NCBI GenBank assembly: GCA_023264995.1 | Contig: JAHFUR010000031.1 | Coordinates: 1-46,867 of the forward strand | Length of the DNA stretch: 46,867 nucleotides | Source of the DNA: Acidimicrobiia bacterium | GTDB lineage: Bacteria > Actinomycetota > Acidimicrobiia > Acidimicrobiales > AC-14 | Reading direction: 5' to 3' | Shown here: piece after piece, positions 37,411 through 39,727 of the stretch | How positions within the stretch are numbered: position 1 is the first letter of the stretch | Layout: each line of letters opens with the position of its first letter | Position numbers and translations under genes: made by a program | Notes under the pieces: generated by a model | What the model saw: only the letters and a program-made list of their open reading frames with translations | What the model was told of the DNA's origin: nothing | The model's database searches: none

Positions 37411-38540
37411 TGCTGGCCGGTCGCCGGGCGTGGGCCGAGGTCGACCTCGGCGCCATCCGGCACAACGCAGCAACGCTGGCGGCGCTGGTCGGGCCGGCCG
37501 GCCTGTGCGCCGTCGTCAAAGCCGGCGGGTACGGCCACGGGTCGGTGGCCGTGGCCCGGGCCGCCATCGAGGGCGGGGCGTCGTGGCTGGCCGTCGCCCT
37601 GGTGGAAGAGGGCGAGGTCCTCCGCCGGCACGGGATCGACGCGCCGGTCCTGCTGCTGTCCGAGCCGCCGGTCGACGCCATGGGCGACGTGGTGGCGCTC
37701 ACCCTGACACCGACGCTCTACACCGAGGAGGGTGTCGAGGCCGCGGCCAAGGCGGTCGTCGCCGCGGGCGCGGCACCGCTCAGCGTCCACGTCAAGGTCG
37801 ACACCGGGATGCACCGCGTCGGCGCCAGCGCCGAGGGCGCGCTGGTCGTGGCCCGGTCCGTTGCCGATCGGCCCGAGCTGGTCTTCGGTGGTCTCTGGAC
37901 CCATTTCGCGGTCGCCGACGACCCGAGCCTTCCCTTCACCGGCGAACAGTGCGCCCGCTTCGATGCCGTCGTCGCCCACCTGGGCGCGGCCGGGCTGCGG
38001 CCCTCACTGCTGCATGCGTGCAACTCCGCAGGCGCGCTGGCCTTTCCTGCCGCCCGCCACGATCTGGTCCGCTGCGGCATCGCCCTCTACGGCGTCGCCC
38101 CCAGCCCGGCGATGGCGGCCACCGACCTCGGGGCCCGCCTCCGGCCGGCGCTGTCCTTGCGGGCACGGGTGTCCTACGTCAAGCAGGTGGCCGCCGGCGA
38201 GGCCGTCTCCTACGGGTTGCGCCGACCGCTGGAGCGGGCCGCCACCGTCGCCACCGTTCCCGTGGGCTACGCCGACGGGGTGCCGTGGCGCCTGGGCGTG
38301 ACCGGCGGTGAGGTCCTGATCGGCGGCCGCCGGCGGCCGCTGGCCGGCAGCGTGACCATGGACCAGATCCTCGTGGACTGCGGCGACGATACCGGGGTGC
38401 TCGCCGGCGACGAGGTGGTGCTCATCGGCCGCCAGGGCACCGAGCAGATCACCGCCTGGGACTGGGCCACCAAGGTCGGCACCATCGCCTATGAGATCCT
38501 GTGCGGCATCGGGCCCCGCGTCCCGAAGCTCTACGCGTGA
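37410..38540 (+). CDS. alr: Alanine racemase
   Basis: Alr supplies D-alanine for peptidoglycan. The PLP lysine is K37 in [11 protein letters not shown]; most relatives read AVVKADAYGHG or AVVKADGYGHG, so the Asp-to-Gly change next to the lysine is unusual. The second catalytic residue is Y268 in [11 protein letters not shown], and [11 protein letters not shown] follows. The length of 376 is normal. The GTG overlaps the stop of the CBS gene. Loss of activity is not expected, because both catalytic residues remain. Confidence 0.96.
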
Positions 38541-38553
38541 CCGGAGGTACCGG

Positions 38554-38559
38554 TACCAT
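38554..38559 (+). promoter_or_regulatory. Candidate -10 box (TACCAT) of the uracil-DNA glycosylase gene
   Basis: TACCAT preceded by GG lies seven bases before GTG 38567. This spacing supports that GTG as a leaderless start, rather than the GTG at 38537 that overlaps the alr stop. Confidence 0.4.
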
Positions 38560-38566
38560 CGTCGCC

Positions 38567-39115
38567 GTGCCGGCCCTGGCCGAAGTCGAGCGGGAGGCGA
38601 AGGCCTGCACCCGTTGCCCGCTGGCGGGCGGGCGGACGCAGGTGGTCTTCGGCGTCGGCGACGCCACCGCCGACCTGATGTTCGTCGGCGAGGCCCCGGG
38701 CCAGCAGGAGGACCTCAAGGGGGAGCCGTTCGTCGGCCGTTCCGGCCAGTTGCTCGACAAGCTGGTGTTCGAGGAGATGGGCCTGACGCGGGACCGCTTC
38801 TACATCGCCAACACGGTGAAGTGCCGGCCCCCCGGCAACCGTGACCCCCAGCCGGCGGAGATCGCGGCTTGCGGGCCATGGTTGGAGGCCCAGGTCGACC
38901 TGATCGACCCGAAGGTGGTTGTCACCCTCGGGAACTTCGCGGCCAAGCTGCTGCTCAACACCACCGAGGGCATCACCCGGTTGCGGGGCCGGGCCTACCC
39001 CTACCGCCGGGGTGTCCTGGTCCCCACTTTCCACCCGGCCGCGGTGCTCCGCGGCGCCGGCGACCTGGCCGCCCAGATGCGCGCCGACCTGGTGCGGGCC
39101 AAGGCCTTCCTGTGA
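38567..39115 (+). CDS. Uracil-DNA glycosylase, family 4 (iron-sulfur)
   Basis: The enzyme removes uracil from DNA. With the start at 38567 it has 182 residues, and the four cluster cysteines are C14, C17, C86 and C102, the spacing expected for a family 4 [4Fe-4S] enzyme. Motif 1 is [20 protein letters not shown], and motif 2 is HPAAVLR. An alternative GTG at 38537 overlaps the alr stop and adds ten residues. The gene stands between alr and tsaE, which are close neighbours in many actinobacteria. Its stop codon lies in the first base triplet of a tandem repeat. Confidence 0.94.
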
Positions 39116-39248
39116 CCGGCCCGGGAGGCCGGTCCCGAGGGCGCTCACTGGTCCACACTCGTCGTGGGAGTGTGGACCAGTGACCGGCCCGGGAGGCCGG
39201 TCCCGAGGGCGCTCACTGGTCCACACTCGTCGTGGGAGTGTGGACCAG
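39113..39248. repeat. Perfect 68-bp tandem duplication with paired hairpins
   Basis: Bases 39113-39180 and 39181-39248 are identical. Each unit contains a small hairpin (GACCGGCC, loop CGGGA, GGCCGGTC) and a large one with 16-bp arms TCACTGGTCCACACTC and GAGTGTGGACCAGTGA around a seven-base loop. The arms of the large hairpins run three bases into the following unit. The unit begins at the glycosylase stop codon, and the second large hairpin ends across the tsaE GTG start. The unit length of 68 is not a multiple of three. No other copy was found in the window. Confidence 0.95.
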
Positions 39249-39727
39249 TGATCACTGCGGCCACCACATCGGTCGACGCCACCCGCGCCCTGGCCGCCGA
39301 GATCGCGGCGTTGGCCCGTCCGGGCGACCTGGTGGTCCTGGCCGGCGACCTGGGCACGGGGAAGACGGCCTTCGCCCAGGGCTTCGCCCACGGCCTGGGG
39401 GTCGACGAGCAGGTCACCAGCCCGGCGTTCATCCTCGTGCGCACCTACGAGGGCCGTATCCCGCTTGTCCACCTCGACGTCTACCGTCTTGACACCATGC
39501 AGGAACTGGTCGACCTGGGCATCGCCGAACTGCTCGACGAGGGGGCGGTGACCCTGATCGAGTGGGGCGACGCCGTCGCTCCCGGCCTCCCGGCCGACTT
39601 CCTTGAAGTCCGGCTCGAAGCGGGCGCCGGTGCCGACGAGCGTGTCCTTACCATCAGGTCCGTCGGGCCCGGCTGGCCGCCGCGGGCCGACGCCCTTCGC
39701 GTCGCCGTCGCGCCGTGGGTGGTCTGA
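39248..39727 (+). CDS. tsaE: tRNA t6A modification ATPase TsaE
   Basis: TsaE is the ATPase that works with TsaB and TsaD to make threonylcarbamoyladenosine at tRNA position 37. Walker A is GDLGTGKT at 33-40; TSPAFILVRTYEG and HLDVYRL follow. The GTG at 39248 gives 159 residues, normal for the family; the frame also continues upstream through the repeat. No ribosome binding site is present, and the start codon is inside a hairpin arm, so initiation is probably affected by this structure. Confidence 0.93.
   Translation: MITAATTSVDATRALAAEIAALARPGDLVVLAGDLGTGKTAFAQGFAHGLGVDEQVTSPAFILVRTYEGRIPLVHLDVYRLDTMQELVDLGIAELLDEGAVTLIEWGDAVAPGLPADFLEVRLEAGAGADERVLTIRSVGPGWPPRADALRVAVAPWVV

What the first reader, a model, noticed from the sequence alone, without database searches (positions are those of the whole stretch)
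39113..39251. Perfect 68-bp tandem duplication of double hairpins running into the tsaE start codon
Two identical units each form a small 8-bp and a large 16-bp hairpin. The repeat begins at the glycosylase stop codon and the second large hairpin includes the tsaE GTG, which has no ribosome binding site. Perfect identity suggests a recent duplication or ongoing copy-number change, which could tune expression of an essential t6A gene. It may also be one locus of a genome-wide repeat family.
Basis: partly seen in the sequence, partly recalled or inferred. Interest (0 to 1): 0.6.

Follow-up and report, generated by a model that had tools for sequence, protein, structure and literature searches.

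The report
Translation-linking repeat family between operon genes
The duplicated hairpin unit before tsaE is one copy of a repeat family scattered through this and related actinobacterial genomes; it sits at overlapping stop/start codons and carries a tiny reading frame that probably links translation of one gene to the next, much like the MIRU repeats of mycobacteria.

Summary
In detail: two perfect 68-bp units (39112-39247) run from the UDG stop into the tsaE GTG, each with an 8-bp and a 16-bp hairpin. The unit is one of a dispersed family. Of 79 arrays from the window's genome (36) and relatives, 77 begin at (G/A/T)TGA and none at CTGA; of 187 ordinary TGA stops nearby, 96 have C there. In 61 of 79 the unit reads as a short ORF ending at a second DTGA, usually the next gene's start. 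With ends set by hairpins closing on DTGA, frame ignored, 64 of 72 distinct units have length 2 mod 3. The hairpins covary (0/500 shuffles) and the next start codon is part of the large one. Congeners lack the element at several junctions, often showing a bare DTGA. A second, 104-bp family does the same in one congener. Best reading: a MIRU-like interspersed element in Acidimicrobiia that inserts at translational-coupling sites and carries a mini-ORF that keeps coupling intact. Mobility and coupling are inferred; tuning of tsaE is untested.

The parts
38501..39115 (+). upstream gene, uracil-DNA glycosylase family; stop TGA 39113-39115 (start codon not verified)
   Evidence: PF03167, E 8e-38; ORF
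39112..39115 (+). first GTGA: UDG stop overlapping the start of mini-ORF 1
   Evidence: sequence; 77 of 79 arrays begin at DTGA
39112..39179 (+). repeat unit 1 (68 bp)
   Evidence: model hits 39112-39183 and 39180-39251
39112..39183 (+). mini-ORF 1, 23 codons plus stop, [23 protein letters not shown]
   Evidence: translation; chain 68,68 COUPLED
39114..39134 (+). small hairpin of unit 1 (8 bp, loop CGGGA)
   Evidence: sequence; helix 1 of the family
39145..39183 (+). large hairpin of unit 1 (16 bp); 3' arm contains GGGAG and the next GTGA
39180..39247 (+). repeat unit 2 (68 bp), identical to unit 1
39180..39251 (+). mini-ORF 2, 23 codons plus stop, starts at GTGA 39180 and ends at GTGA 39248-39251
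39182..39202 (+). small hairpin of unit 2
   Evidence: sequence
39213..39251 (+). large hairpin of unit 2; contains the tsaE GTG in its 3' arm
   Evidence: arms 39213-39228 / 39236-39251
39234..39238 (+). GGGAG, Shine-Dalgarno-like, 9 nt before tsaE GTG, within the hairpin arm
   Evidence: sequence; 31 of 61 coupled arrays have an SD-like 4-mer in this zone, no control run
39248..39727 (+). downstream gene tsaE; GTG 39248-39250
   Evidence: PF02367, E 4e-35; start lines up with orthologues

Best explanation
It is a two-unit array of a small interspersed (MIRU-like) element. Shown: units sit at DTGA, where D is A, G or T; most carry one open mini-ORF from that start codon to a second DTGA; they form two covarying hairpins; and they are present or absent at the same gene junction in different species. 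Inferred: the element moved into sites where the stop of one gene overlaps the start of the next. A ribosome ending UDG at GTGA re-starts on mini-ORF 1, translates 23 codons through both hairpins, ends at the next GTGA, repeats this for unit 2, and then starts tsaE. The large hairpin hides the tsaE start and its GGGAG unless the mini-ORF is translated, so tsaE stays dependent on translation of UDG. Unit number would then set the number of restart steps.
For: No C before the first TGA in 77 of 77 arrays that have the TGA, against 96 C of 187 TGA stops not at an element. Mini-ORF ends at DTGA in 61 of 79; coding by GC3 on both sides in 54 of 79. Frame-blind lengths 2 mod 3 in 64 of 72 distinct units, in-frame stop in 1 of those 64. 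Covariation: 39 two-sided cells against 12.9 in shuffles, 0/500; slid controls pair 27-45% of cells against 89.9%. The start-codon base pairs with its left-arm partner in 24 of 27 aligned 68-bp units (C-G 20, T-A 3, T-G 1). Junctions without the element in congeners at tsaE and at 9 of 9 other decidable junctions in at least one of two congeners. In other families 36 of 39 model hits start at DTGA and 32 of 39 end coupled. A second element of 104 bp has the same design. Two run-on arrays are confirmed in-frame fusions, to dihydroorotate dehydrogenase and a TadE-like protein.
Against: TGA was part of the search core, so only the D base and the 3' end are free tests. 17 arrays run on without a stop within 32 codons and 1 is broken; some are fusions, others frame-shifted (units of 66, 69, 49 bp). 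In the own genome 11 of 36 run on. Some arrays have no coding sequence after them (for example L072, L075, L076, L100), 11 lack it upstream and 3 on both sides; a few of these are cut by short flanks. Stops are also uncommon in the other two frames (9 and 5 of 64). No codon-position signal in the variable part: the peptide is not conserved there. In one search arms were chosen for pairing, which favours paired ends. For 50-bp units two of the covariation measures are weaker (22 and 34 of 500 shuffles). No mobilising enzyme found. A review passage says structure just after a stop lowers coupling (PMC12548453). At tsaE the congeners' UDG is 7 codons longer, so that site is not base-exact. No expression data.
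Confidence: 0.74

Rival explanations
1. REP-like hairpin element whose job is at the end of the upstream mRNA: it stalls or protects at the stop codon and lowers or stabilises UDG; the reading frame is a by-product of the founder sequence.
For: Hairpin begins at the stop codon; passages of PMC12306157 say E. coli REPs within 15 nt of a stop can stall ribosomes and lower translation. Hairpins covary. Some arrays lie at gene ends with no coding sequence after them.
Against: Length 2 mod 3 kept in several length classes (50, 59, 62, 65, 68); the terminal DTGA is followed by coding sequence in its frame in 52 of 61 coupled arrays. Y1 transposase family PF01797, the REP partner, matched 1 of 21 genomes, G015, which lacks the element.
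Confidence: 0.12
2. Copy-number switch: unequal recombination changes unit number and so tunes tsaE, selected for that purpose.
For: Perfect tandem units; arrays of 1 to 4 core hits, 61 of 79 with one; pyrD junction has three full units plus a truncated one in G002 and only the truncated one in G000.
Against: tsaE array absent from both congeners; the same element sits at many unrelated operons; no expression data.
Confidence: 0.08
3. Inert selfish repeat with target preference for DTGA; the frame looks conserved only because insertions that break the operon were lost, or because all copies descend from one framed founder.
For: Patchy: 30 model hits in G074 and none in its congener G018; peptide not conserved in its variable part; some arrays with no gene after them still keep the frame (L076, L100).
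Against: Not exclusive of the best explanation: the mini-ORF would still be what makes it harmless. Shortened units (for example 44 and 23 bp, L058 and L017) still end coupled.
Confidence: 0.2
4. Assembly artefact of the duplication.
For: The genome is in 81 contigs; no reads available here.
Against: 136 bp in total, and comparable arrays are seen in other assemblies.
Confidence: 0.03

Closest known systems
MIRU (mycobacterial interspersed repetitive units)
   Same: Short repeats, often in tandem, that insert at start codons, with an internal ORF coupled to the next gene at -4 nt spacing (PMC12548453, passages); 40-100 bp, scattered in 41 places, 12 variable in copy number, effects on expression proposed (PMC2734929, passages). 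Insertion at DTGA sites is recalled from Supply et al. 1997, not read.
   Different: Different class (Acidimicrobiia, by the named relatives); strong paired hairpins with the next start codon inside the hairpin; main lengths 50/65/68. Whether MIRUs have such hairpins, and any sequence kinship, was not tested.
Rickettsia palindromic elements (RPE)
   Same: Small palindromic repeats that stay open in frame and encode a recurring peptide; can fuse to genes (PMC10969869, passages).
   Different: RPEs are about 150 bp and many lie inside genes; this element lies between genes at DTGA.
REP/BIME elements
   Same: Palindromes near stop codons, multiple copies.
   Different: No reading-frame rule known to me for REPs (recalled); PF01797 not found in the carriers that were searched: G000, G001, G002, G005, G006, G019.

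Membership tests
MIRU | dispersed short repeat, often tandem, variable between strains | tested here: met
   36 arrays in the own genome, 10 of them with 2-3 core hits; presence/absence between species; strains of one species not available
MIRU | sits at DTGA stop/start overlaps | tested here: met
   77 of 79 arrays start at DTGA; 54 of 79 coding on both sides
MIRU | internal ORF overlapping both neighbours | tested here: met
   61 of 79 arrays end at DTGA, 43 of them coding on both sides; 32 of 39 hits in other genomes
MIRU | sequence homology to the mycobacterial family | not tested
   no mycobacterial MIRU sequence was fetched
MIRU | mobility | tested here: inconclusive
   junctions without the element in congeners imply insertion or loss; no enzyme found
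REP with RAYT transposase | Y1 transposase (PF01797) in the carrier genomes | tested here: not met
   no match in G000, G001, G002, G005, G006, G019; 1 of 21 genomes matched, G015, a non-carrier; G074, G111 and G034 not searched
Intrinsic terminator | hairpin followed by a T run | tested here: not met
   0 terminator-like sites in 39000-39400
Rfam families | match to a curated RNA family | tested here: not met
   0 matches at gathering score over 6 sources holding arrays

The most novel reading that the evidence does not exclude
Translation-linking interspersed repeats are not a mycobacterial oddity but a recurrent kind: within one acidimicrobial genus at least two repeat families without detectable sequence likeness (68-bp hairpin type; 104-bp type) use DTGA overlaps as a safe harbour, bring their own mini-ORF, and can replace the host gene's start codon with their own (argJ and argB: ATG at the junction in G001, GTG after the element in G000). 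In the hairpin type the start codon is a paired, covarying part of the element.
Probability: 0.55. Interest if true: 0.72.

Novelty: new variant of a known kind. Interest (0 to 1): 0.6.

Why it matters
It would show that small repeats can spread between tightly packed operon genes by carrying a built-in translational adapter. It gives many natural variants (unit number, hairpin strength, broken frame, ATG or GTG) at homologous junctions to test how reinitiation and RNA unfolding each contribute to translational coupling, whose mechanism the review PMC12548453 (abstract and passages) calls not firmly established.

Tried and rejected
Rejected: Rfam family, promoter or terminator, Y1/REP transposase, phage carriage (0 exact core matches in viral contigs). 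Conserved peptide: entropy by codon position shows no third-position excess, so I do not claim a functional peptide; in G074 many copies carry a mismatch in the small hairpin that leaves TGPGGRS unchanged (by eye).

Limits of the counts. Lengths are taken to the in-frame stop, so their mod 3 is circular; the test used is, in which ends come from the best hairpin closing on a DTGA, frame ignored. It leaves out 30 of the 109 units for which no such hairpin was placed (chance hits L008 and L087 among them); the 79 placed are 72 distinct sequences, some from one array. In one search the ends come from a 72-position model, which favours the 68-bp length, so 33 of 39 with 2 mod 3 is no free test there. 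One search printed the letters TGA as a label; one search checked them: 77 of 79 are DTGA, L056 and L059 are not. L008 and L087 were dropped before the 79 arrays.

Of the 31 downstream pieces, 14 were used. Nine junctions were decidable (permease, phosphatase, carA, thiE, aminotransferase, ruvA, YraN, argJ, argB). Five were left aside: a second permease (no clear orthologue), ABC-2 gene (paralogues), ispG and livG (junctions differ beyond the element), argD (uncertain remnant). One search examined 29 matches from 22 loci, not all 42. The order-wide search hit 7 of 148 drawn genomes; G002 is not among the rows shown, so it was probably not drawn. The class-wide search hit 1 of 296, the own genome, with strict filters and few candidates scored, and known carriers are not among its rows; it is weak evidence of absence. 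Paper searches for prior reports listed no such element outside mycobacteria that I noticed; only listings and passages of four papers were seen, in an open-licence library.

Full report
OBSERVATION. Two identical 68-bp units lie at 39112-39247, followed by GTGA at 39248-39251. The first unit starts on the stop of a uracil-DNA glycosylase-family gene; the second ends on the GTG of tsaE. Each unit holds an 8-bp hairpin and a 16-bp hairpin. The folded strand is far more stable than shuffles (z -7.05). A GGGAG lies 9 nt before the tsaE GTG, inside the hairpin arm.

FAMILY. A similarity search matched 8 of 41 genomes: 34 matches in the own genome, 21 and 27 in two congeners (G001, G002), 5 in G006 and single short ones in four others. 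A pattern for the small hairpin with up to 3 mismatches found 66 places in the own genome, against 6 for the reversed control pattern. An exact core pattern in the collection of 84,980 species gave 39 stretches. Apart from one lone hit in Actinomadura, which I judged chance, these are MAGs titled Acidimicrobiia, Acidimicrobiales, Actinomycetes or Actinomycetota.

ANATOMY RULES. From fetched stretches I grouped 79 arrays, 36 of them in the own genome; 61 hold one core hit, 9 two, 8 three and 1 four. The base before the first TGA was never C. 77 of 79 begin with GTGA (47), ATGA (28) or TTGA (2); in L056 and L059 the TGA itself is changed. TGA was part of the search core, so only the base before it is a free test. 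Among 187 TGA stops of nearby genes not at an element, 96 had C and 91 another base. Reading from that base as a start codon, 61 of 79 arrays give a chain of short ORFs ending at DTGA; 17 run on without a stop and 1 is broken. Two of the 17 were checked and are in-frame N-terminal fusions: to dihydroorotate dehydrogenase (L064, Pfam match from residue 14) and to a TadE-like protein (L066, match from residue 13). Others are frame-shifted. By third-position GC, coding sequence lies on both sides in 54 of 79, only downstream in 11, only upstream in 11 and on neither side in 3; a few of these are cut by short flanks. With ends set by the best hairpin closing on a DTGA, frame ignored, 64 of 72 distinct units have length 2 mod 3, 6 have 0 and 2 have 1. 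An in-frame stop occurs in 1 of the 64; the other two frames have stops in 9 and 5 of 64, so the stronger evidence is length and end position.

STRUCTURE. In 27 aligned 68-bp units the two helices show 39 cells changed on both sides against 12.9 in shuffles, 0/500, and 89.9% of cells paired against 27-45% when slid. In 14 units of 50 bp: 11 against 4.9, 0/500, though the number of pairs with two-sided change (3, reached by 22/500) and of pair types (7, reached by 34/500) is weaker. The start-codon base at the 3' end pairs with its left-arm partner in 24 of 27 aligned units (C-G 20, T-A 3, T-G 1) and in 67 of 72 of the wider set, in which arms were chosen for pairing. Where the start is ATG the arm is usually TCAT. 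The variable part shows no codon-position signal.

JUNCTIONS WITHOUT THE ELEMENT. The UDG/tsaE junction in congeners G001 and G002 is a bare GTGA overlap; their UDG is 7 codons longer. Of 14 other G000 junctions searched in G001 and G002, nine were decidable. carA: bare DTGA in both. thiE: bare in both, though in G002 only 6 nt are seen before a contig end. ruvA: DTGA start without element in both. argJ: ATGA in G001; G002 also lacks the element. argB: ATGA in G001; G002 has the other, 104-bp element. A metal-permease gene: GTGA in G001, occupied in G002. A phosphatase gene: TAG stop followed by ATGA in G001; G002 not read. An aminotransferase gene: TTGA in G002, occupied in G001 by a 50-bp unit where G000 has a 68-bp one. 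YraN: lacking in G002 (start and stop 15 nt apart), occupied in G001. At argJ and argB G001 has ATGA, while G000 has ATGA on the left and GTGA on the right, so the element seems to supply the new start codon. Over 61 coupled arrays the left/right D bases are G/G 32, A/G 17, A/A 7, G/A 3, T/T 1, T/G 1.

OTHER LINEAGES. A covariance model found the family in 7 of 148 drawn genomes of the order, including G074 (30 matches) and G111 (6) in another family, while G018, congener of G074, has none. A class-wide draw of 296 gave only the own genome, with strict filters; this says little. Of the 39 hits in G074, G111, G019 and G034, 36 start at DTGA and 32 end in a coupled DTGA; 33 have model-defined length 2 mod 3, which the model itself favours.

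A SECOND FAMILY. At argJ-argB in G002 a 104-bp unit is duplicated between DTGA sites. It has 42 matches in G002, none in G000 and only short weak ones in G001, G006, G011 and G017, so it has no BLAST-level likeness to the 68-bp family of G000. Of 29 matches examined, 21 read as a mini-ORF that ends at DTGA, 16 of them with exactly 104 bp (2 mod 3); 4 of the 21 come from two near-identical copies of the argJ-argB region. The 8 exceptions are L269, L272 (two), L281, L282 (two) and parts of L284 (two).

MECHANISM. Inferred: each DTGA is a -4 nt overlap where a terminating ribosome restarts. The mini-ORF carries ribosomes across the insert and opens the hairpin that covers the next start. This combines reinitiation and RNA unfolding, the two models in the review PMC12548453 (passages). 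The same passages report that structure just after a stop lowers coupling, which speaks against easy passage. How the units move is unknown; Y1 transposase was not found in the carriers searched.

COMPARISON. MIRUs of mycobacteria are described as working alike (PMC12548453, PMC2734929, passages). Membership by sequence was not tested. I therefore call it MIRU-like, a new variant of a known kind.

Noticed in passing
L184 and L201 (G002 C160), argJ-argB junction; further copies in L267-L286: Second DTGA-bounded repeat family, 104-bp unit with mini-ORF like VSGHAGRAVRPRRSAAEASAGRPLRAGVSHDQERS*, 42 matches in G002.
   Followed up: partly
L064 (G000) and L071 (G002), pyrD junction: A truncated unit is fused in frame to the N-terminus of dihydroorotate dehydrogenase (checked for L064); G002 has three full units before it, G000 none.
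   Followed up: partly
L017 near 2542 of the reverse strand (G000 C1): A 23-bp remnant unit in which the conserved GGAGG of the small hairpin falls 6 nt before the ATG of the next gene, where it could serve as a Shine-Dalgarno site.
   Followed up: no
L231-L257 (G074): Many copies share a change in the small hairpin that breaks one pair but keeps the TGPGGRS reading, the reverse of the compensated changes seen in other genomes (by eye).
   Followed up: no
61 coupled arrays, base after the first TGA: Where the base after the left TGA is not C, it equals the base after the right TGA in 7 of 11 arrays (permutation p 0.0015); may hint at a longer target duplication.
   Followed up: partly
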